IMG/VR virus record: IMGVR_UViG_3300045999_010308
Location: 18,823-82,822 of that record
From: a virus
Strand: one strand, 5' to 3'
Length of the DNA stretch: 64,000 bases
The notes under the pieces are model-generated. The model saw only the letters and a program-made list of their open reading frames with translations. It did no database searches and had not been told where the DNA came from. Shown here one piece after another: positions 22,312 to 54,540 of this stretch (the stretch's first letter is position 1; each line of letters starts with the position of its first letter). A program made the position numbers and the translations under genes.

Positions 22312-22381
22312 TGTTTTGTTCTTCAATAAGAAATCCTGATATATCAAAATGATATTCACTGTCACCATTTTGAGAAACTAC

Positions 22382-23442
22382 CCTGCAATCTACTTAACAA
22401 GTCAAGCCGATTGTTACAAAAACCAGTAAATGCGATGGTGAAGGTAGCTTTTTCCTTGCAATCTACTTAACAAGTCAAGCCGATTGTTACCCTTAGTGGC
22501 GAAGGTTTCCCCTGAGATGAAGCGTCACTTGCAATCTACTTAACAAGTCAAGCCGATTGTTACGAAAAGCGAGGGGAAACCGCGGCCACAATCTTAAGAG
22601 ACTTGCAATCTACTTAACAAGTCAAGCCGATTGTTACTGTGGGGAGGGTTCCCCAGATTGTCGGTATAGTACCCTTGCAATCTACTTAACAAGTCAAGCC
22701 GATTGTTACGGAAAAGGAAAGATTCACTTGACAGATTCCAAGAGAAACTTGCAATCTACTTAACAAGTCAAGCCGATTGTTACCCCGATCGACCGCGAGT
22801 CTCTCTCGACAAAGGGGCTTGCAATCTACTTAACAAGTCAAGCCGATTGTTACCTGATTTTGATAACGTTGATTGGCACTGGATAGGTCTTCTTGCAATC
22901 TACTTAACAAGTCAAGCCGATTGTTACTAGATGAAATTTTGGCCGCAATTGCTATAAGTAACCCACTTGCAATCTACTTAACAAGTCAAGCCGATTGTTA
23001 CTTCGCGGTTTATCAGGCTTAAAACACCCCCATTGTGCTTGCAATCTACTTGACAAGTCAAGCCGATTGTTACTAACTGATTAAGATCATCGGAGTAGTA
23101 CACTTCTGTCCTACTTGCAATCTACTTAACAAGTCAAGCCGATTGTTACCAATTGCCTCGATAATTTGATCCTTAGTTGCCCCTTCATCCTTGCAATCTA
23201 CTTAACAAGTCAAGCCGATTGTTACCAGTTACCGGCTAGAGTGCCGGGAGTGTGGACGGTTCCAAACTTGCAATCTACTTAACAAGTCAAGCCGATTGTT
23301 ACAGGTTCATTTTGGCAAAATAAGCCAAAATGACGCGCTTGCAATCTACTTAACAAGTCAAGCCGATTGTTACTGGGAATACAATTTTGATCGCTCAAGT
23401 GCCGGTCTTGCAATCTACTTAACAAGTCAAGCCGATTGTTAC
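22382..23442 (-). CRISPR. CRISPR array 1: 15 repeats, 14 spacers
   Basis: Fifteen 36-nt repeats start at 22382, 22455, 22528, 22602, 22674, 22748, 22818, 22892, 22966, 23038, 23114, 23190, 23267, 23338 and 23407. On the plus strand each begins CTTGCAATCTACTTAACAAG and ends GCCGATTGTTAC. Spacers are 33-41 nt. Repeat 1 begins CC instead of CT and repeat 10 has TTGAC for TTAAC. The last repeat contains the stop codon of the cas12 gene. Minus-strand transcription, in line with cas12, is inferred from the anti-repeat and from degeneration at the gene-distal end. No adaptation genes are nearby. Confidence 0.97.
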
Positions 23443-25124
23443 CCAGTCTCCCAGAGTGTAAGCTGCGTATAGTCTGCGTTGACTGTTTGCGCGGGTTGCG
23501 AGTGGATCGACCTTTTCCTTGTTTTTTTCTTAGGTGTCACTGGCTCGGAGGTCAAAACCAGTAAGGTTTCGAGGGTTTCTTCCCCAAGTAACAATCGGCT
23601 GGACTTGTCAAGTAATTCCTCCTGCGCTGATTCCTTATCGAAATCCTTCAGAGGCTTAACTTCCCCGGTGCAAGCCGGGTAGCTTCTTACGAAGTCTGCT
23701 TTCCCTAAGATGTTGATTGCGGCGGCCACATCTCTGGGTAAAGTACATCCACACTCTAAACATTTATGGGTGCGGGTTGATAAACTTTTTTTAACACGAT
23801 TGCCACAGCGAGGACAATCCTGACTGGTGTAAGCTGGTTGAACTTTGATAAACTCTCGGTTGGGAGTTTTCATTTTCGTTTCAAGAAAACCAGTTAATTG
23901 TCCTAAACTAGCATCAGCAAAGGATTTATTTAATCCCCCTTTGGCTTTCGCGTTATTGCGTTCGTAGCCTTTACCGTCTTCTCTTTTTTTCGGTTTAGGT
24001 CGTCGCATTAAATTCTTTAAGTTGAGGTCTTCTACGGCTACAGCGCCATGATTTCTAGCAATATCGGTACTTAAGGCATGATTAAATCCTTTGCGTTGTC
24101 TTGCTATTTTTTCGTGAGTTTTGGCAACTTTAGCACGAGTTTTAGCGAGATTTTTGCCGTCTTTATTTTCCCCTGCTTTATACTGTCTAGCGGTTTTTCT
24201 TTGCAGTTTTGCTAGTCTTTTTTGCTGTTTTCTATAGTATTTGGGCGGGTCAATTTGTTGGCCGTCGCTGGTACTAATTATATATTCTAGTCCTACGTCA
24301 ATACCGATTGCTTTATCGGAATCAGGTAGATCATCTACTTCAAATTCACCAAATAGACTTAGATAATATCCCGATGGGTATTTGATAATTGATACGGTAG
24401 AGGCTTTTCTGTCACCCCACCGAATATCTAAGGTATTGTTGATAATTTTTAAATCGCCTAATGTTTTGCCACAGCTACCTATAGATATTTTATCCCCTTT
24501 TCTAACAGCGCAATCGCTGATCTCAGAATAAAGAGATTTAATTTTATCTTCTTTTCTTTTAAATCTAGGAAGTTTTCTGTCTAAATTCTTTTTATCGAGT
24601 TTGGTGTAAGCTTTCCAAGAATCAGCAAGCTTTTTTAAAACCCCTTTGACAAAAGCCATAGGGATGTCCTTGCATAGCTCTGGACATTTTTCTTTTGTAA
24701 TACAGCCACATAACCCAAAATAATTATCAGATTTTAACCGCCGTTGAATAGGGATATGGACAGGATAAGAGTGACCTGCTTTTTGTCTTTTTTCTCTAGC
24801 TATCTGTATTTTAACTTTTTGCTTGCCAGTTAAATATTTGGGGGTGTAAAGGGGATTAGGAAGGGATTTACCTTTTTCGTTTTTCAGGGAGTCAATAAAT
24901 TGAGGTTTTTTAGCTAAACGACGTTTAACCCGTTTAACTGGTTTTCCTGTTATTTTCTCAATCTCGTCGTAATACTTATTAAGCTGATATTCCATCAGTA
25001 GCTCTAGCCCAAAATTCCAGACAGCTTTAAGCTCGTCCATCCAGCGATCAATATAGGCTCGCTGAGTAGCATTAAGGTTAAGCTTTATGTCCGCAATAGT
25101 TTTCTTGACTAGCATGGCTCTCAT
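23439..25124 (-). CDS. Compact type V Cas12 (V-U, TnpB-like) nuclease 1
   Basis: 561 residues. TnpB/Cas12 layout: N-terminal helical recognition part with an extra Cys cluster (CGCITKEKCPELC, about 145), RuvC-I GIDVGLEY (D276), RuvC-II AVEDLNLKN (E365), zinc finger CPRCG...CLECGC (about 436-456) and RuvC-III RDVAAAINIL (D465). The catalytic triad is intact, though the usual Asn after the last Asp is Ala. A ~90-residue C-terminal extension ends QLTLWE, shared with nuclease 2. Ribosome site AAGGAAGG. No TnpA or transposon ends are seen, so this is a CRISPR effector; V-U2 is the closest class from memory. Its 3' end encodes an anti-repeat (23588-23614). Confidence 0.88.
   Translation of the reverse strand: MRAMLVKKTIADIKLNLNATQRAYIDRWMDELKAVWNFGLELLMEYQLNKYYDEIEKITGKPVKRVKRRLAKKPQFIDSLKNEKGKSLPNPLYTPKYLTGKQKVKIQIAREKRQKAGHSYPVHIPIQRRLKSDNYFGLCGCITKEKCPELCKDIPMAFVKGVLKKLADSWKAYTKLDKKNLDRKLPRFKRKEDKIKSLYSEISDCAVRKGDKISIGSCGKTLGDLKIINNTLDIRWGDRKASTVSIIKYPSGYYLSLFGEFEVDDLPDSDKAIGIDVGLEYIISTSDGQQIDPPKYYRKQQKRLAKLQRKTARQYKAGENKDGKNLAKTRAKVAKTHEKIARQRKGFNHALSTDIARNHGAVAVEDLNLKNLMRRPKPKKREDGKGYERNNAKAKGGLNKSFADASLGQLTGFLETKMKTPNREFIKVQPAYTSQDCPRCGNRVKKSLSTRTHKCLECGCTLPRDVAAAINILGKADFVRSYPACTGEVKPLKDFDKESAQEELLDKSSRLLLGEETLETLLVLTSEPVTPKKKTRKRSIHSQPAQTVNADYTQLTLWETG
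23588..23614 (-). ncRNA. Anti-repeat in the 3' end of cas12-1 (tracr/omegaRNA-like)
   Basis: The plus strand reads GTAACAATCGGCTGGACTTG then TCAAGTA, identical at 25 of 27 positions to the array-1 repeat as read on the minus strand. The mRNA strand here can therefore pair with the crRNA repeat: 25 Watson-Crick pairs, one G-U and one mismatch. It lies 145 nt before the array on the same transcript. This is the geometry of a tracrRNA, or of an omegaRNA overlapping the 3' end of tnpB. Confidence 0.6.
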
Positions 25125-25245
25125 GGATCGACCTTCCTTTATTCTTATTTAAATCTACCACAACCCTACTAGAAATGTCAAGTAAAAAGTCTAAAGATTT
25201 TTTGGGATACCAGTTCCCACATCAGAACCTGTAGCCCAACCCTTA
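25115..25245. repeat. 131-bp direct repeat, copy A (cas12-1 start/promoter)
   Basis: Identical at every base to 28010-28140. It covers the first codons of the cas12 gene (to ATGAGAGCCA), the ribosome site, the promoter and the last 18 codons of the 28086 gene, here left as a fragment without its body. The spacing between copies is 2,895 bp. Confidence 0.95.
25152..25181 (-). promoter_or_regulatory. Promoter of cas12-1
   Basis: TTGACA (25181-25176), 18-nt spacer starting TTTCTAGTAGG, TAGATT (25157-25152) on the minus strand, followed by AAGGAAGG before the ATG at 25124. The same promoter stands before cas12-2 and, in similar form, before the 28086 gene. Confidence 0.7.
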
Positions 25246-25324
25246 GTTAGGCTAACCATGTTCCCAAGAGAAATCCTAGTAATAAAGTTGGTATTCCAAT
25301 AAGATAAATTTCGTGATTTATTAT

Positions 25325-25612
25325 TTATTCTTTATAATTATTAATAGTTTCCCAGAAATAAATCTCTGCTAGTAATTTATTTCTTTTAAGTATTAGTTTT
25401 TGCCAAAAACGAAAACTTTCAAAAAAGTTATCCCATCCACGAGGGACATCAACAAAAATACTATCTAAAATGATAAGTAGATACCTCTCGACAAAATTGC
25501 GTATTGTTAAGATTAAAGAACGTGGTTTTATTTCCATTTCTTTTAGTTCCGCTTTGGTTAATTTTTTCCTTAAAAATTGACTAATCTTTTTATCTAGTTG
25601 TGTTTGATTCAT
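25325..25612 (-). CDS. Unknown protein between the two CRISPR units
   Basis: 95 residues, basic and helical, with a hydrophobic middle (VERYLLIILDSIFVDV). It begins 25 nt from the distal end of array 2 and ends before the duplicated promoter of cas12-1. No family recognised. Its position inside the CRISPR block makes an accessory role conceivable, but nothing in the sequence shows it. Confidence 0.5.
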   Translation of the reverse strand: MNQTQLDKKISQFLRKKLTKAELKEMEIKPRSLILTIRNFVERYLLIILDSIFVDVPRGWDNFFESFRFWQKLILKRNKLLAEIYFWETINNYKE

Positions 25613-25636
25613 TGTTTTTTTCGGGTTTAATATTTA

Positions 25637-26031
25637 GTTTAATCTTAATAAGGCTTAAGCTTAATTGTTTCACTCAAAATCACCCATAGGATGATATTAA
25701 GATGGTACGTTTCAATCCCTAATAAGGATTAAGGTTAATTGCTTTAACATATTAATTTGCAAACAATAGCTTCAGATGAAGTTTCAATCTCTAATAAGGC
25801 TTAAGGTTAATTGCTTCATCGCCTAGACTTGAAATAATTCTCAATGATTACATCGTTTCAATCCCTAATAAAGCTTAAGCTTAATTGCTTCTGTTAAAGG
25901 GGAAAAATTGTCATCATACCGTGAGTTTCAACCCCTAATAAGGATTAAGCTTAATTGCTTCGCTAATTGCGACCGGGTTAATTGGGACTACATTGGTTTC
26001 AACCCCTAATAAGGCTTAAGCTTAATTGCTT
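25637..26031 (-). CRISPR. CRISPR array 2: 5 repeats plus a degenerate terminal repeat
   Basis: 36-nt repeats start at 25709, 25781, 25855, 25925 and 25996; plus-strand form GTTTCAACCCCTAATAAGG then TTAAGCTTAATTGCTT with several variable positions. A 34-nt degenerate copy lies at 25637-25670. Spacers are 34-38 nt. Read on the minus strand the repeat ends GGGGTTGAAAC, the usual 3' handle of cyanobacterial repeats, and the degenerate end is distal to the gene, so the array is transcribed with cas12-2. The sequence differs fully from array 1, so the two systems should not share guides. Confidence 0.95.
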
Positions 26032-26129
26032 CCCATCTTCTTTTAGCCCTTGATGTAAAAGGGTTTCGGGTAAGGATTGCGCCCCATTCGCTAAAATTTA
26101 GTTTTCAAGGTTCTGCTCATTCCAAAAAA
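26032..26129 (-). ncRNA. Non-coding link between cas12-2 and array 2, possible guide scaffold
   Basis: 98 nt with no gene. On the minus strand it contains AACCTTGAAAACTAAATTTT, reminiscent of sequences next to cyanobacterial arrays, and GGGGCGCAATCC followed by CCCGAAACCC. A similar GGGGCGCAATCC/CCGAAAACCCC block occurs about 100 nt upstream inside the gene (26160-26186). Duplicated G/C blocks in an AT-rich context suggest a folded RNA. Role inferred. Confidence 0.4.
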
Positions 26130-28019
26130 TCAGGCTAGTAAATCCCAGATCGTAAGTTGGTCGGGGTTTTCGGGGATTGCGCCCCGTGATTTTTTAGAAC
26201 TTCGCTTAGATGCCTTATTGGGTAAGGCTTTCGGGTTATTTATGCCGTGGCTATCCTCGCACGGCTGAGGTGGGGCGGAAAGAAAAATAAGGGATTGCGA
26301 GTCATTCTCGGACTGAGTAGGTATGCGATTCCCTTCCTGCTTCATCTGCTTACTGATCGAGTGTTCGGCATTCTCTATCGGCGCGTCCCCGATAGACTCT
26401 TGATTTGCATCAAGATCAGGCGTGAATTCCCTCGCTAAACCGAGGTATTTTCCAATCAAAGAGACAGGAAACTTGATTAAAGAGCCAATCGCTCTTAAAA
26501 ACTCATCTCGTAAGCCACGAATCAGAATATTTGCGGCGGCATTCTGATCGGCGTGGGCTTCGTAACCACAGCTAGTGCATTTAAACTTTGATTGACTAAC
26601 GCGGTTAGCTTTATTAATATTACCACAATTGAAGCAAGTTTGTGAAGTATGTTTAGGATTAACTCGGATCACTTTTCTGCCACGTTCTTTGGCTTTATTC
26701 TCGATGAACGTGCGAAGTTGACCGATAGCATTATCAAGCAATACTTTATTTAATCCAGACTTTCTTTTTTTGCCATTCTGTTTATAGCCATTGCCGTCTT
26801 CCTTTTCTTTAGGTTTTGCGGCGGCTGTCATGTTTTTTAGTTTTAAATCTTCTAAAATAACTGATTGATATTCGCTGGTTATTTTATGGGCTAATTGGGC
26901 ATTTCTCCCTTTTCTTTGACGGGCTATTTTCTCATGAACACGGGCAAGTTTAGCGTAAGTTTTACGCTGATTATTAGAGTTATCTTTTTGTCTAGAAGCT
27001 TGACGTTGCAATCGGTTAAGTCGCTTTTTCTGAATTTTTGCGTAGCGTTTAGCTTCTGATTGTCTCCCTAAGTCATCGGTAAATATTGCTACAGCACCCA
27101 TATCTAACCCGACACACTTATCAGATTCTTTGTAGATCGTGTCGTCAGTTTCGATTTCGATAGTTAGCTGTAAATAATATCCCGTCGCTTTACGAGTAAT
27201 TTTAGCCATTCGGGGAGCTTTCCCTTGCAATCGATCAAGTCCCCGTACTTTCAGTAATCCTATCTTTGAAGAAACAATAACTCCATTAGATTTAATCTTT
27301 ATAGTTTCAGGTTGACCGTTAACAAGAGTCTCTACCTTATCCCGTCTTCCTTTAAACTTAGGAACCCCACGAATACCTTTTTTAGCGGCATCGTAAGCGG
27401 GTTCAATCACACTTTTAAAAAAGCCTTTTTTAAACTCTGTTTCAATTTCACCGATAAATTTTGCTGTATCTTCTCGGAAATAAAAAGCAAGTTTCTGTCT
27501 ATTAAGATAGTTAACAGCATCCTTATCAATATTTTCAGCATTCATAAAACGACGGATAGGAATAGCATCTAAGGGAGTGTACTCTTTTCCGTTACTTGTC
27601 TTTTTAAAATAGGCGATTTTACAGCAAGGATTACCGATTAAAAGTTCTTTCTCTTCATCTTTAAGGGTTTCAAACTCTTTTTCGTCGTAATGCCCAAAAT
27701 AACTTAACTCCCATATTTCAGGGCTAAACTCATCAAATTTATGTTTTGTGCGATAATATCTTTGTTTTGATTCTTCCTTAAGTGCGATCGAAAGATTCCA
27801 GAGTAACTTACACGCCACTAAAGAACGATCAATCTCTGTGATTTGTTCTTTAGTAGGATGTATTTTAAATTCTAAGACTTTCCTAGGAGGCTTTTCTTCC
27901 TTTGTCTTAGGAGTCTTTTTGACAATACTAAACCTTATATGCCCGTCTTTAGAACTAGGCGTTTTTTGAATTTGATACTCATCTACTTTACGCTTAACTT
28001 TACTTTTTTTGGCTCTCAT
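26130..28019 (-). CDS. Compact type V Cas12 (V-U, TnpB-like) nuclease 2
   Basis: 629 residues. RuvC-I VGLDMGAVAIF (D306), RuvC-II VILEDLKLKNM (E390), zinc finger CFNCG...CTSCGYE (about 465-487) and RuvC-III HADQNAAANIL (D491) are all intact, so cleavage activity is expected. The C-terminal extension of about 130 residues is polar and low in complexity and ends QLTIWD, like nuclease 1. Outside the core the two nucleases are very different in sequence and length. The start ATGAGAGCCA, ribosome site and promoter are identical to those of nuclease 1. A 19-nt partial anti-repeat lies at 26204-26223. Confidence 0.87.
   Translation of the reverse strand: MRAKKSKVKRKVDEYQIQKTPSSKDGHIRFSIVKKTPKTKEEKPPRKVLEFKIHPTKEQITEIDRSLVACKLLWNLSIALKEESKQRYYRTKHKFDEFSPEIWELSYFGHYDEKEFETLKDEEKELLIGNPCCKIAYFKKTSNGKEYTPLDAIPIRRFMNAENIDKDAVNYLNRQKLAFYFREDTAKFIGEIETEFKKGFFKSVIEPAYDAAKKGIRGVPKFKGRRDKVETLVNGQPETIKIKSNGVIVSSKIGLLKVRGLDRLQGKAPRMAKITRKATGYYLQLTIEIETDDTIYKESDKCVGLDMGAVAIFTDDLGRQSEAKRYAKIQKKRLNRLQRQASRQKDNSNNQRKTYAKLARVHEKIARQRKGRNAQLAHKITSEYQSVILEDLKLKNMTAAAKPKEKEDGNGYKQNGKKRKSGLNKVLLDNAIGQLRTFIENKAKERGRKVIRVNPKHTSQTCFNCGNINKANRVSQSKFKCTSCGYEAHADQNAAANILIRGLRDEFLRAIGSLIKFPVSLIGKYLGLAREFTPDLDANQESIGDAPIENAEHSISKQMKQEGNRIPTQSENDSQSLIFLSAPPQPCEDSHGINNPKALPNKASKRSSKKSRGAIPENPDQLTIWDLLA
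26204..26223 (-). ncRNA. Partial anti-repeat in the 3' end of cas12-2
   Basis: The plus strand reads GCTTAGATGCCTTATTGGGT; the array-2 repeat read on the minus strand contains GCTTAAGCCTTATTAGGGG. They agree over about 16 positions with two small gaps. It lies 173 nt before the array, close to the 145 nt seen in unit 1. Weaker than unit 1 and could be chance. Confidence 0.35.
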
Positions 28020-33700: not shown

Positions 33701-36700
33701 TATCCTTGATTGATTGGGGAATAAAGCCTAATTCTTTATTAGTTTGTCGGATTAAATCAGCTAAAGTGCGATTAAGGTTTTCCTGAGTCCGTTTAATATC
33801 CTCAATCGTTCTTAGTCTATTTCTTTCAGCGTCTTGCTGTTGCTCTTGTAGATTACGGATATTTCTTAGGGTAGAGATATAGGAAGTTTCTATCTCCTCG
33901 GTTCGGGATTGGAAGGTGCGTCCGCGACTGGCAAGGTCAGCTTGTCCCTGTACAAATTCCAGGAAAATGTCCCCTAATTCTTTACCAGCGTCGCTTGTAC
34001 CGGGTATTAATAACCGATTTTTAACTTGCTGTACCCTGATTCTATCAGTTGTATCTAGTAGCTGATTTTGGGCATTTAAGAGGTTCTTATCGAGTTCCCT
34101 AACTAAATCACTGTAACTTTCAGATAGGGAACGATTCTCTTTAAATGCTGACAGTTGAGCGTCTTCAATCTGTCTCCTGTAATCGTCAATCTGACGATTA
34201 AAGTCGATTATCTGACGGTCAAGGTTGCGGTAATAGTCTTGTAGTGATGTTTGTTGCTGTAATAGGTTAGCGCGGGCTTGTTCTAGGGCTAATCGGGTAT
34301 TATCAACCTCTTGCTGAATCACATTAGGGTCGTCTGACGCACTTTCTAATCGACGATAAGCCTCTCCTAATAATCTCTCTTGGTTGCGAACTTCTGATAA
34401 GGCATCCCGATAGGAAGCGGCTGGCCCCCCAAAGGGTAATTGCCTTAAAGTAGCAATTCTCTCGTTGACATTGGCACCGACTATTGATGCTTGTCTGGCA
34501 TTTCTTGCGCGCTCTCGTCTAGCGTTAGCAATTTCTAGTTCTGTATCAACAATTGATTTATCAATAGTTAAAGTTTGTCGTCTAATAGATGCTTGCTGTT
34601 TAGCTGTTTCTAATACCTGTTTTAATTCAAAAGGCGATTGATCTCCCAACTGTTGTAACCGATCACCTATAGCTTCTGGTGACACACTTCCCTGCTGTAA
34701 TGCCGTTCTAAAATCTATTCCATTTAATTCAGGCATTAACTCAGTTATTCGCTGATTAATCTGATCTGTTAGGGTGTTTTGTAATTCTTTTTCTTTAGTT
34801 GCCAGTAATCCATTAAGCGAATTAAACTGATCCTTGACAATAGATAGGCTCTGTTCTCTAACGGTCAAGTCTATTTCAAACGGCTTCAGGTTCCCAGATA
34901 AAACTTGTCGTTTAATATCTGTTTCAGACAAAATAGTTCGACCACTAGAGACAAATTCAATATTAGATAAAGCTCTTGCTACTTTATTTATTTGTTCTGT
35001 TAATTGTTGATAGTTGACTAAATTCTCTTTGACTGCTTCGTTATATTTTTCTTGCGATTCTTTTAATTTTCTAAGTTGAACTTCAGTAATTTCTAGCTGG
35101 ATACTAGCATTATCTTTTTGGGAATTAGAAGACTCTGGATCATCTAAAACTTTTTTAATTGCTGTAATTCTTTCTTCTGTAGATGCTATCTCATTAACAA
35201 TAAGCCCAATTTGAGGAAAGTATTTTTCCGTTAAAGCTTGTATTTCTTGGTTTACTTTCGCAATTTCTTGACGAACAGATGTAGCTTTTTTAATGTCAGC
35301 ATCTCCACTAGCTATGATTTCATCTATCTTGAGGTCTTTCGCTTTTTGCCGCAATGTGTCAAGTTTACCTGTAAATTCGGTAATCTTTGTATCACTGAAT
35401 GTATCGGTTGATAATCTTAAAATTTGTGTCGTATCAATGAGTCCCCCCGCAGTAAATTCTAAGCTTTTATCTCTTTCTCTGTTGTTTTTAAATCGCTGAA
35501 TTGCGGTTGCACTATCAGTTATAACAGTAGAAGCTTTAGGTGTAGGCAAAGGTTTCTCTAGTAATCTTCTCAATTCTTGTAACGATTCTTGAGTTGATTT
35601 AAGAGATCGTTTAGACTCTTCGGAGCCTGCGTTGATGTACTGATAAAGCTCTTTAAAAGCTTCCATTACACCATAAATTAAAGCAGTCCATCCTAGTCCT
35701 TTAAGTAGTCCTACTCCAATCTGAGATATTGCCCCACGAGTAGATGCCGCTGTAACTCCCAGTGCTTTTAATCCTAAGTCTATAAGTCCGATATTTTTTA
35801 AAACCATAATAAAACCGCCAGCACTAACAACACCAATAGATGTCAATACAGTAGCTAACGACTGACCATTTTTCGTTAATATTTCTAGTCCTTTTGTTAT
35901 TAATGGTAATCCTAATTTAGAAGCGTTTAATAAAGATTCGCCTAATGAAATGCGAAGCAATTCTATCTGATTTTGAACTCTGGCAACTTGAGCAAAAGCA
36001 GTATCATCAATAACACTAAGTCCACCAGCACTTTCTAAGTTAATCTGTGTAGCTAGTTTAGGTAGCAAATCTTCTGCTAAAATAGATCCTGATTCAACTA
36101 ATTTAATAAATTCTTGAGAAGTCAATCCCATAGAACGAGCAGCAATCTGTAACGCGCCTGGCATTGCTTCACCTAACTGAGAGTTAAGTTCTTCCATTGA
36201 AACACGACCTTTACTAGCTATCTGAGTAATGGCTAGTAAAGCTCTGTCTTGCTGTTGAGAACTAGCACCTCTAGTAGCCAATCCTAATGTTATTCCTTCA
36301 AAAATTTTATCTTTTTGAAATTCTAATGGCGTATTTATTACAGAAGCACTAAACTGCTGATAATTTTTGGCAGAAGATAAAAATGATATTCCTAATCGGT
36401 CAGCTTGTATCTTTAATTTAGCAAGAGAAGATTCAGCATTTCCAGTTGAGAAATTTAAGACTGTTTCAAGCCGCTCCATGTTTAATGCTGCTTGAAAAGA
36501 ATCAGTGGTAAATTGTCGAAAAAACACACCGGCTTGCTGAAGAATTTGAAAACCAGCAAAAGCTGATAACAGTGTTCTTGCTCCAAGCAAGACTCGTTTA
36601 ATAGGTTCAGGCAAGTTATTTAACTGATTTTTAATTGCTTCAAATGCCTTACCTATTTTTTGTAATTGAGTAGGATTGTCTATATTCTGAATTATCTTGC

Positions 36701-51311: not shown

Positions 51312-51593
51312 TTAATTAAATTTTTTGTACTCTTGTAGTATTATTTGGGTTGCCTCCTCAATTTGGGTTCCTTTTGATAGCAGTTCAAGGACTTTAGCTA
51401 AAACTTGTCTGACTCGTTCTTTACCTATTCCTAATTCTGCTGTAGTTGATGCCACTTTAAAGCGATAGTTCCGATGACGGGAAGTAACAGGCACTGGGTC
51501 AAGATTATTGTTTTTTGCCCACACCAGATAGATGTAGGCTTGTCTAGAAGTTATCACTTTTGTTTTTCTAGTCTTAATTTTTGAAAACATCAA
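51312..51593 (-). CDS. Small DNA-binding-like protein
   Basis: 93 residues. It has a basic N-terminus, and STTAELGIGKERVRQVLAKVLELL looks like the recognition part of a sigma-type or winged helix. It overlaps the HAD gene by 20 nt. Probably a regulator; family not identified. Confidence 0.55.
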   Translation of the reverse strand: MMFSKIKTRKTKVITSRQAYIYLVWAKNNNLDPVPVTSRHRNYRFKVASTTAELGIGKERVRQVLAKVLELLSKGTQIEEATQIILQEYKKFN

Positions 51594-52125
51594 TCATCTG
51601 GTATTCTTTGATTAAATCAAGGGAATATACACTCCAAATATGAGCGTCTAAAAAGTTAATTCCCGCATTTTTTGCCGCTAGTTTATCTTCTTCTCGATCT
51701 CCTACCATTAAAATATCGATAGGTTCTTTGGCGAAGGCTCTTAAAGCAGCAAAAATCATCCCAGGATTAGGCTTTCTGAATTGCTCAATAAGATCGGGGT
51801 ACAGTTCATCAATTTGCACGCAGGAACATTTTCTCACGCGAAAACATTCCCGTCCTTTAAAATCAGGGCAAAAATAAATGCAAGAAAGCCGGGGAAATAT
51901 TTCTAAAGTTTTTAGCTGTTCTTCAATTGCACTTTTTAAGGATTTATGTCCAGCAGCTACTCCGCCCTGATTAGTGATTCCTATCATCGTCCATCCCTCT
52001 TGATGGTAAATTTCCATAGCTTTTATCGCCCCTTCGATTGGTTCCTGATCGTTTGGATCTTCGATGAATTTTCCGTTGGTAGATTGGCGGATCGTGCCAT
52101 CAAGATCGAGCAATAAAGCTTTCAT
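51574..52125 (-). CDS. HAD-superfamily phosphatase (HAD-IIIA, GmhB/PNK-3'-phosphatase-like)
   Basis: 183 residues. Motif I DLDGTI (about 7-12), motif II TNQ (about 51), Lys in FRKPNPGM (about 118) and motif IV MVGDREEDKLAA (about 140) are all present. A Cys-rich loop CPDFKGRECFRVRKCSC can bind zinc as in GmhB phosphatases. It may dephosphorylate a heptose bisphosphate or a nucleic-acid 3' end. A CRISPR-repeat-like hairpin precedes the gene. Confidence 0.75.
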   Translation of the reverse strand: MKALLLDLDGTIRQSTNGKFIEDPNDQEPIEGAIKAMEIYHQEGWTMIGITNQGGVAAGHKSLKSAIEEQLKTLEIFPRLSCIYFCPDFKGRECFRVRKCSCVQIDELYPDLIEQFRKPNPGMIFAALRAFAKEPIDILMVGDREEDKLAAKNAGINFLDAHIWSVYSLDLIKEYQMIDVFKN

Positions 52126-52134
52126 TTTTTCAAA

Positions 52135-52180
52135 TTTTCCCCTACTTAAGCTTCAGGGCATCCCTAATAGGGATTAAGCG
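52135..52180 (-). repeat. CRISPR-repeat-like hairpin element, copy 1
   Basis: Minus strand TTAATCCCTATTAGGGATGC, then CCTGAAGCTTAAGTAGGGG. The core ATCCC-TATTA-GGGAT is the hallmark of cyanobacterial repeats. A nearly identical 42-nt block is at 52470-52512, before the next gene. Confidence 0.65.
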
Positions 52181-52218
52181 AATAATCAAGACAACTGATA
52201 ACTGACAACCAATTCAAC

Positions 52219-52455
52219 CTATCTAGTGTTGCATCCCAAAATTCCATAAGGATCGCCGTCTTCCTCCACATCTATACTATTCCATCGCTGAATAATTTCT
52301 TCAGCAAAAGCCTTAGTTAGCAGGGAACCTGGACGATAATATGATCTTCTGTAATGGGCTACTTCTGCGGCAGTTAAAATTTCAGAAGTAGTAGCCCGGG
52401 AGTTGATGTAGTTAGCAAATTCTTGAGCAGTCATTACCTTTTTGGAATTAGCCAT
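52219..52455 (-). CDS. Small unknown protein
   Basis: 78 residues (MANSKKVMTAQEFANYINSRATTSEILTA...). Helical, possibly DNA-binding. It is flanked by the two CRISPR-repeat-like elements. No family recognised. Confidence 0.5.
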   Translation of the reverse strand: MANSKKVMTAQEFANYINSRATTSEILTAAEVAHYRRSYYRPGSLLTKAFAEEIIQRWNSIDVEEDGDPYGILGCNTR

Positions 52456-52469
52456 TGCCTTCTTGATGA

Positions 52470-52569
52470 TTTTCCCCCTACTTAAGCTTCGGGGTATCCC
52501 TAATAGGGATTAGATAAAGCGCACGCAACTACGACTATAGTTCATAGTTTCAATTCCTAATAGGAGTTC
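52470..52569 (-). repeat. Degenerate mini-array: two CRISPR-repeat-like pieces with a 34-nt spacer
   Basis: Minus strand: GAACTCCTATTAGGAATTGA then AAC (52569-52547), 34 nt of unique sequence (52546-52513), then TAATCCCTATTAGGGAT (52512-52496). The first piece ends ATTGAAAC like true cyanobacterial repeats. The two pieces are not identical and one lacks its 3' handle. Confidence 0.5.
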
Positions 52570-52631
52570 TTTGTGCAGCTACCTTAAGTAAATCACTTAA
52601 TTCTTGATAGGTGTTGGCGAAGCGTGCCGCT

Positions 52632-53099
52632 TTAGGCACTGGCACGCTGAGAAAAGCGGTAGCATACTTCTTGATAGGAGATGCTCTGGATTTCCCCTTT
52701 GACATTTTCAAATACCCAATAATCGCCATCGCTATCTTGATAAATAGCATTAGCATTTAAATCAATAGGAATCTCAAAAGTTGCAGATGTTTCGCCTTTT
52801 TTACCTTCAAATTTTCGACTTACAGGCTCGATAAACTTCTTAGTGAATCCACCGTGCTTAATATCTTTTTCGGGTGAGATTTTCGCTACCCATGCTCTCC
52901 AAGCGCGGCGAGGAGTTTCTAAAATAAGAGTGCGAGTTTTAGGCAATCTTTTAAAAGCCACGATATTATTTTTTTGAAGCTGTTCAATTGCGGCTTCTAC
53001 CGCTAAGATTTTTTCAATTAGTTTACGCTGGTTTTGCCGTCCTCTACTGATTGCTAGTTGAGCGTTTAGTCGAGCCAGTTTAGATTGTAGGTTATTCAT
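52632..53099 (-). CDS. Unknown protein with shared N-terminal coiled-coil module
   Basis: 155 residues. The first 42 residues match the N-terminus of the 48456 protein. The remaining beta-rich part (YQDSDGDYWVFENVKGEIQSISYQEV) is unique. No known family. Confidence 0.55.
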   Translation of the reverse strand: MNNLQSKLARLNAQLAISRGRQNQRKLIEKILAVEAAIEQLQKNNIVAFKRLPKTRTLILETPRRAWRAWVAKISPEKDIKHGGFTKKFIEPVSRKFEGKKGETSATFEIPIDLNANAIYQDSDGDYWVFENVKGEIQSISYQEVCYRFSQRASA

Positions 53100-53243: not shown

Positions 53244-53347
53244 CAGCCGACTACTATTTCAAATCGGTTACTGGACTTACACCAGCAAGCTTAAAACGAC
53301 TCATTAACTAGTCTCACCAGCCGACTACTATTTCAAGTCGGTTACTG
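53244..53347 (-). ncRNA. Duplicated hairpin in a gene-free region, possible structured RNA
   Basis: The 390-bp gap 53100-53490 holds no gene. Two 30-nt copies (53244-53273 and 53318-53347) read on the minus strand CAGTAACCGA(C/T)TTGAAATAG then TAGTCGGCTG. Each folds into CCGACT/AGTCGG; the single difference changes C-G to U-G, so pairing is kept. Flanks such as GCTGGTGTAAGTCCAG also fold. No known riboswitch was matched. Confidence 0.45.
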
Positions 53348-53490: not shown

Positions 53491-54540
53491 TTATTCTGTA
53501 AACCACTGTAAATAAATCTGATGCGCTATCTGTGCAGTCATTACAGGAGGCACGCTCATTCCTATTAAATACTTTGGATCGATATTTTTAAAGTTGTAAT
53601 CGAGTGGATAGCTACCAATTAGGCAAGTTGCTTTATTTGATATATAATTATTTAAGTTACTGTGTATTAGCTTCTTGTTGCTTGCTATTACTGTTAAAGG
53701 CGTTTGATTTTCTAAGCAAACAAAAGTAAATCCAATGCTGCCGATTTTGCCATTTAAACTTTTTTTATGTGTTTGTAACACACCTGTTGATGTTATAGGG
53801 TTTTTTAAAAGTTTTTTTATATAATTATGTTTAATTGCTTCTCCAATTTCATTTGTTCCAAATTCACCAAACAAAATTGGCTCTTCATTAAAATTTAACT
53901 CTAGATTTTTAAAGTTTAAATCATTCCTTTGACAAATAAAGAACACTCGCTCACGTTTTTAAGGCACTCCCATGCTTGCGGCGTTCAAAAGAAATAACTG
54001 TACTTTATATCCTGCTTTTTCAAATTCATCTTTTATTCGCTTTACATACGCTTTGGCATTACCTTGAATAATTCCTTTAACATTTTCAGCGATAACGACC
54101 TTTGGCTGTAGTTTTTTTGCTAATCGTATGTAATCAAAGAAAAGGTCATCAAGCCGCTGTTTAGCCTGACCTTCCCTAAATACTTTTTCTTTCCCCCAGT
54201 CTTTTTCTCTATTTCCTGCTATGCTAAATGAAGAGCAGGGAGGTGAGCCGTCTAAAATATCTAGGTTATAAAGTTCATTAGGAAAGATTGTACGATCAGC
54301 AAAATCTCTTATATCTTCAATAAATAAATATTTAGGATTGTGGTTAACTTTATATACATCAGCTACCTGCGAGTCTATTTCAACACCTCCTAAATGGTCA
54401 AAACCTGCTAACTTGTAACCCATAGTCGAACCACCGCCACAGATAAAAGTACCAAATACTTTTAACCCATGTTTTTCAATTCCAGGTGCTGGGTATCCAT
54501 CTGACAAATTCCACTTATATGCAAATTTATGTTTAGTCAT
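53491..54540 (-). pseudogene. DNA cytosine-5 methyltransferase interrupted by one in-frame TAA
   Basis: The N-terminal part has the SAM-binding GTFICGGGSTMGYKLAGF, the catalytic GSPPCSSFSIAG and the AENVKG motif. Then MGVP is followed by TAA (53959-53961) and KRERVFFICQR in the same frame, continuing to VPPVMTAQIAHQIYLQWF at 53491. In the family this spot is normally Gln (VPQxRxRVFF), so one CAA-to-TAA change explains the break and no frameshift is present. Either a recent pseudogene, a read-through gene or a sequence error. It overlaps the ParB-like gene upstream, a usual partner. Confidence 0.8.

What the first reader, a model, noticed from the sequence alone, without database searches (positions are those of the whole stretch)
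52135..52569. CRISPR-repeat-like fragments with host-type ends before two small genes
GAACTCCTATTAGGAATTGA-AAC, a 34-nt unique segment and TAATCCCTATTAGGGAT look like a decayed mini-array with cyanobacterial class 1-type repeats, unlike arrays 1 and 2 except in the GAAAC end. A second repeat-like block is at 52162-52178. Phage mini-arrays can use host Cas proteins to exclude competing phages. Alternatively they are regulatory hairpins.
Basis: partly seen in the sequence, partly recalled or inferred. Interest (0 to 1): 0.6.

Follow-up and report, generated by a model that had tools for sequence, protein, structure and literature searches.

The report
Swappable CRISPR-derived leader of cyanophage genes
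The repeats before these two small genes are not a working CRISPR array: they are two copies of a short movable control sequence, probably descended from a host CRISPR repeat, that sits before the start codon of at least nine unrelated genes in viruses of the bloom cyanobacterium Microcystis and in one Microcystis plasmid, and marks where those genes are swapped in and out.

Summary
On the minus strand, a 38-nt block with two hairpins, TAATCCCTATTAGGGAT-ACCCCGAAGCTTAAGTAGGGG, occurs twice (52475-52512 and 52139-52176; 36/38 identical), shortly before the ATGs of a 78-aa gene and a HAD/PNKP-type phosphatase gene.

The same leader occurs in 40 IMG/VR contigs and a Microcystis aeruginosa NIES-298 plasmid, 5-22 nt before the start codons of nine unrelated gene families. 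The 34-nt "spacer" is nearly constant. Its 23-nt core occurs in 27 contigs, always inside this unit, and it has no credible protospacer.

Alignments show that genes are swapped exactly at the leader's 3' end, and that one gene has been lost by recombination between two leaders.

The CRISPR link is real as ancestry. The stems match the Microcystis type I-D repeat. On the plasmid and in a related 17.6-kb contig the leader is the altered last repeat of a small array.

Best reading: a mobile 5'-leader cassette (ribosome-binding site plus recombination joint) built on a decayed type I-D repeat, working like the T4 PeSL cassettes. Whether the hairpins still engage host Cas6 is open. RNA-level regulation is inferred, not shown.

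The parts
52475..52512 (-). Leader core, copy 1: H1 stem 52496-52510, H2 CCCC 52491-52494 with GGGG 52475-52478 (SD-like AGGGGG)
   Evidence: 72.8 bits
52139..52176 (-). Leader core, copy 2: H1 stem 52160-52174, H2/SD 52139-52158
   Evidence: 72.8 bits; 36/38 identical to copy 1
52547..52569 (-). H0: CRISPR-repeat-like hairpin with intact ATTGAAAC end (type A upstream module)
   Evidence: compared with Microcystis DR1
52513..52546 (-). 34-nt middle segment (the supposed spacer); part of the cassette, near-constant across contigs
52570..52600 (-). Conserved upstream edge of the type A cassette (TTACTTAAGGTAGCTGCACAAAGAA); promoter not identified
52177..52236 (-). Type D upstream module before copy 2 (GGTTGTCAGTTATCAGTT...TTGATTATT), shared with the NIES-298 plasmid before an unrelated gene
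52219..52455 (-). 78-aa accessory gene behind leader copy 1; no Pfam hit, no significant PHROGs hit
51574..52125 (-). HAD-superfamily/PNKP-like phosphatase gene behind leader copy 2
52632..53099 (-). 155-aa gene upstream of the cassette, the constant left neighbour in most relatives

Best explanation
The block is a mobile 5'-leader cassette of accessory phage genes, not a working CRISPR array. SHOWN: a 38-43-nt leader with two potential hairpins ends 5-22 nt before the start codon of at least nine unrelated genes in related and unrelated Microcystis-type phages and a Microcystis plasmid. It comes with exchangeable upstream modules. Gene replacements and one gene loss have their breakpoint at the leader. 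INFERRED: the leader is transcribed as a 5' UTR. Its AGGGG run, inside hairpin 2, is the ribosome-binding site, so any incoming gene is expressed on arrival. The 38-nt identity lets homologous recombination swap genes there. Hairpin 1 and the upstream hairpin H0 descend from the Microcystis type I-D CRISPR repeat: the last repeat of a small phage- or plasmid-borne array lost its TGAAAC end and was fused to the CCCC...GGGG hairpin. Whether the hairpins still bind host Cas6 or another protein is not known.
For: Exact core in 14 contigs, relaxed patterns up to 40 IMG/VR contigs plus the window and one plasmid. Nine unrelated downstream families; PGAP independently starts two of these genes right behind the leader on NZ_CP046059. 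Clean swaps: L022 and L024 are 95.7% identical up to the end of the leader, carry unrelated genes behind it, then are 97% identical again; L007 gives a third gene in the same slot. Gene loss: L008 and L002 match L005 through the first leader (98.7-99.2%) and then continue from the second leader, so the 78-aa gene is gone. Cassette-only similarity: L003/L011 share 125 bp, plasmid and window share 90 bp. G-to-A changes in GGGG give GAGG or GGAG, still SD-like, and a degenerate copy has AGGAG instead. H2 keeps CCCC/GGGG while its loop varies from 11 to 13 nt. Consensus-like promoter upstream in L076 and L009. Repeat ancestry.
Against: Thermodynamic z-scores of the window leaders are not significant, and H1/H2 show no two-sided covariation; H0 shows one two-sided change, within reach of shuffles. 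No consensus promoter was found in the window's own cassette, and L006 copy 1 also falls below the scan threshold. The spacing from GGGG to ATG is long for some copies. Recombination at the leader could simply follow from shared sequence, without selection for it.
Confidence: 0.72

Rival explanations
1. It still works with the host type I-D machinery. Cas6 binds H0 and H1 and cuts before ATTGAAAC and after the H1 stem. This releases a crRNA-like or sponge RNA (RNA anti-CRISPR, CreA-like regulator) and trims the mRNA. Not exclusive with the best explanation.
For: The ATTGAAA handle of H0 is invariant in nine distinct versions and all cells of its stem pair, with U-A, U-G and C-G variants. Stems match the host I-D repeat, and the loop alleles CTATTAG/CTACTAG occur in both hosts and phages. 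In L076 a consensus promoter lies just upstream of H0. Precedent: Racrs, including one on a shared transcript with an acr gene (PMC10651486).
Against: Only about 21 nt of the 37-nt repeat are kept in the window; copy 2 has no H0 at all; H1 has lost the handle; no target for the 34-nt segment was found; no family or defence-library hit for the downstream genes that would suggest an anti-CRISPR.
Confidence: 0.2
2. Working mini-array: the phage uses host Cas proteins and the 34-nt spacer to target competitors.
For: Repeat-like ends; Microcystis phages and the NIES-298 plasmid do carry host-type mini-arrays; phage N-1 carries a transcribed array (PMC4916379; quotes it).
Against: No spacer variation, core never outside the cassette, no protospacer; unit precedes unrelated genes; repeats unequal and spaced 57 nt instead of 69-77.
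Confidence: 0.03
3. The palindromes act at DNA level as repressor or activator operators near the promoter, and the GGGG run is only an RBS.
For: H1 is a near-perfect palindrome on both strands; upstream modules A, B and D keep a TTAT-rich stretch just before it; promoters are unclear in those types.
Against: In L009 and L076 a consensus-like promoter lies well upstream of H1, so H1 would be inside the transcript; H2 is conserved next to the RBS.
Confidence: 0.15

Closest known systems
PeSL mobile regulatory cassettes of T4-type phages (Arbiol et al. 2010, PMC2839356, not held; content from own knowledge, title seen)
   Same: Small regulatory unit with stem-loop, repeated before unrelated accessory genes; gene shuffling by recombination at the unit.
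   Different: Here two leader hairpins with the RBS directly before the ATG, no terminator-like stem found, stems of CRISPR-repeat ancestry, shared with a plasmid; other phage group.
Solitary repeat units / RNA anti-CRISPRs (PMC10651486)
   Same: Host-subtype CRISPR-repeat mimic carried by phages outside arrays, in some cases behind a promoter.
   Different: Partial repeat only, second stem without the handle, fused to an mRNA leader; no anti-CRISPR activity tested.
CreTA degenerate repeat pairs (PMC9458426, PMC8501985)
   Same: Two degenerate repeats around a fixed segment.
   Different: No target found in the window for the segment; on phages; before many unrelated protein genes.
Microcystis type I-D CRISPR repeat DR1 (PMC4428289)
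   Same: Stem CCCTATTAGGG and, in H0, the ATTGAAAC end; 31 nt of repeat-like sequence in NIES-298 plasmid copy 2 (29/31).
   Different: 3' end replaced by RCCCCGAAGC...GGGG; used as a gene leader.

Membership tests
CRISPR array (functional) | near-identical repeats at regular spacing | tested here: not met
   H0 and H1 differ and are 57 nt apart, against 69-77 in arrays 1 and 2
CRISPR array (functional) | variable spacers, matching foreign DNA | tested here: not met
   34-nt core constant in 27 contigs, always inside the cassette; no credible match in phages or window
CRISPR array (functional) | processed crRNAs | not testable with these tools
   needs small RNA-seq
Solitary repeat unit / Racr | near-full-length match to a host repeat | tested here: not met
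   window H0 matches 18 of the last 21 nt of DR1 only (sequence)
Solitary repeat unit / Racr | inhibits the cognate CRISPR-Cas system | not testable with these tools
   needs interference assay
CreTA | segment between degenerate repeats partly complementary to a nearby promoter | tested here: not met
   best matches in the window no better than shuffled segments; rest of the genome and the host not tested
PeSL-like mobile regulatory cassette | same unit before unrelated genes | tested here: met
   nine families
PeSL-like mobile regulatory cassette | recombination breakpoints at the unit | tested here: met
PeSL-like mobile regulatory cassette | contains an early promoter | tested here: inconclusive
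   consensus-like only in L076 and L009; none in window
Known structured RNA (Rfam) | match above gathering score | tested here: not met
   only tRNAs in the window

The most novel reading that the evidence does not exclude
Microcystis phages and plasmids have turned a host CRISPR repeat into an mRNA leader that host Cas6 recognises. Cas6 binding or cutting would tie expression of swappable accessory genes to the presence of the host's type I-D defence, while the same RNA soaks up Cas6.
Probability: 0.15. Interest if true: 0.88.

Novelty: new variant of a known kind. Interest (0 to 1): 0.6.

Why it matters
It gives a concrete, testable way in which phages of a major bloom-forming cyanobacterium trade accessory genes with each other and with plasmids: a portable leader that both expresses and joins the incoming gene. 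It also shows a CRISPR repeat drifting into a non-immune role, and it is a ready handle (leader plus following gene) for finding new, possibly anti-defence, phage genes.

Tried and rejected
Working spacer: no protospacer in phages, the window or IMG/VR contigs outside the cassette. Rho-independent terminator: none found. Known RNA family: none. Coding explanation of H0: the block can be read as the end of an ORF (...RTPIRN*), but in the window that ORF overlaps the 155-aa gene in another frame, and the ORF is cut short or shifted in several relatives (L003, L021, L028) while the DNA is kept. Covariation of H1/H2: none. Overall folding energy of the window leaders: not significant. Host and prophage copies: no exact match to two patterns in 84,980 prokaryote genomes. 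The model finds no leader in Ma-LMM01, MaMV, N-1 or CL131, only H1-like repeats in the first three and nothing in CL131. The host chromosome could not be searched for a target of the 34-nt segment.

Full report
OBSERVATION. Each copy ends shortly before an ATG: that of a 78-aa gene and that of a HAD/PNKP-like phosphatase. A covariance model gives the two copies 72.8 bits each and nothing else in the window above 22 bits; the next best hits are the repeats of array 2.

DISTRIBUTION. The exact 33-nt core is in 14 IMG/VR contigs. Relaxed patterns raise this to 40 contigs, besides the window and the 17.3-kb plasmid NZ_CP046059 of Microcystis aeruginosa NIES-298 (the script lists 40 records and its last pattern misses L025 and L027, which one search shows to carry the leader). 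Some contigs are near-duplicates. No exact match to two patterns was found in 84,980 prokaryote genomes. The host is inferred to be Microcystis from the plasmid and from the repeat type.

GENES BEHIND THE LEADER. Clustering gives eight unrelated families, and L076/L079 add a ninth (66 aa). Apart from the phosphatase, those tested have no Pfam or significant PHROGs match (the 66-aa family was not scanned). The distance from the G run to the ATG is 5 to 22 nt. On the plasmid, PGAP annotated two of these genes with starts just behind the leader.

RECOMBINATION JOINT. L022 and L024 are 95.7% identical for 861 bp, up to the end of the leader. They then carry unrelated genes, and are 97% identical for the next 1044 bp. 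L007 has a third gene in the same slot. L005 has leader, 78-aa gene, leader, phosphatase gene. L008 and L002 match it through the first leader (99.2 and 98.7%) and continue from the second leader, so the 78-aa gene was lost by recombination between leaders. Contigs L003 and L011 share only 125 bp, the cassette; the plasmid and the window share only 90 bp around a leader, before different genes. The part upstream of the leader also exists in at least five types, and the same plasmid-type gene has different upstream modules in L006 and L036. Contig G004 (107 kb) shows no match to the terminase of the window's phage group yet carries the cassette.

CRISPR ANCESTRY. The Microcystis type I-D repeat is GTTCCAATTAATCTTAAACCCTATTAGGGATTGAAAC (PMC4428289). 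The window's H0 matches 18 of its last 21 nt, and H1 matches 15 of 16 nt of the stem region. In the NIES-298 plasmid and L006 the leader before the MNQF gene reads GTTCCAATTAATTTTAAGCCCTATTAGGGAT followed directly by RCCCCGAAGC..., so 31 nt of the repeat (29 identical) run into hairpin 2. Four degenerate repeats stand just upstream. The two spacers nearest the leader are shared between plasmid and contig; those further upstream differ. L078 has an almost intact repeat end as H0. I infer that a small host-type array lost the end of its last repeat and became the leader of the following gene.

NOT A WORKING ARRAY. The core of the 34-nt segment lies inside the cassette in all 27 contigs that hold it. 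It has no credible match in 50,697 phage records, and none in the window better than shuffled controls. It changes by point mutation, not by replacement, within a type.

HOW IT PROBABLY WORKS. The predicted structure is two hairpins, with AGGGG, a plausible Shine-Dalgarno sequence, inside the second. Supporting facts: CCCC and GGGG are kept while the loop varies from 11 to 13 nt; G-to-A changes in the G run yield GAGG or GGAG; a degenerate copy has AGGAG instead. Against: folding z-scores of the window leaders are not significant, there is no two-sided covariation in H1/H2, and in some relatives other foldings compete. H0 pairs in all nine distinct versions with one two-sided change, and its ATTGAAA end is invariant. 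Consensus-like sigma-70 promoters stand upstream in L076 and L009 but not in the window. Transcription as a 5' UTR, translation control, and any role of Cas6 are therefore inferred.

VERDICT. A mobile leader and gene-swap joint that works like the T4 PeSL cassettes, with stems of CRISPR-repeat origin. Membership in CRISPR arrays, solitary repeat units and CreTA was tested and not met on the features that could be tested. A remaining Cas6-related function is the most interesting open possibility.

Noticed in passing
window 22377-28019: Two CRISPR arrays (15 and 6 repeats), each with a nearby Cas12u2/Cas12f-like TnpB-type protein (23439-25124, 26130-28019), like the V-U2 system reported in Aphanizomenon phage CL131 (PMC6293099).
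   Followed up: partly
window 53244-53347: A 30-nt hairpin repeat CAGCCGACTACTATTTCAARTCGGTTACTG, two copies 74 nt apart; one to three copies in about a dozen related loci.
   Followed up: partly
L037:1450-1613 (Microcystis phage MaMV-CH01): Two perfect host type I-D repeats; the 39-nt spacer between them is a 90% inverted copy of the region just upstream, which contains TATAAT. Possible self-regulating mini-array.
   Followed up: partly
Ma-LMM01 (NC_008562) 13629 and 35778-35936: One solitary and three arrayed host type I-D repeats.
   Followed up: no
L038:1512 (MaMV-DH01): A single repeat-like end just before a homologue of window gene 25325-25612, which lies beside array 2.
   Followed up: no
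terminase gene in G003 (84 kb) and G018: Large terminase split by about 1.2 kb that stays in frame (open frame 959-964 aa): probably an intein.
   Followed up: no
window 53491-54540: The cytosine-C5 methylase is one 348-aa gene in relatives but two frames (193 + 151 aa) here and in L014: the frame is broken.
   Followed up: no
NZ_CP046059 and 17.6-17.8-kb contigs L006, L009: Small circular element with integrase, VapE/primase-type helicase and few phage-like genes; may be a phage satellite. Upstream spacers of its small array differ between relatives.
   Followed up: partly
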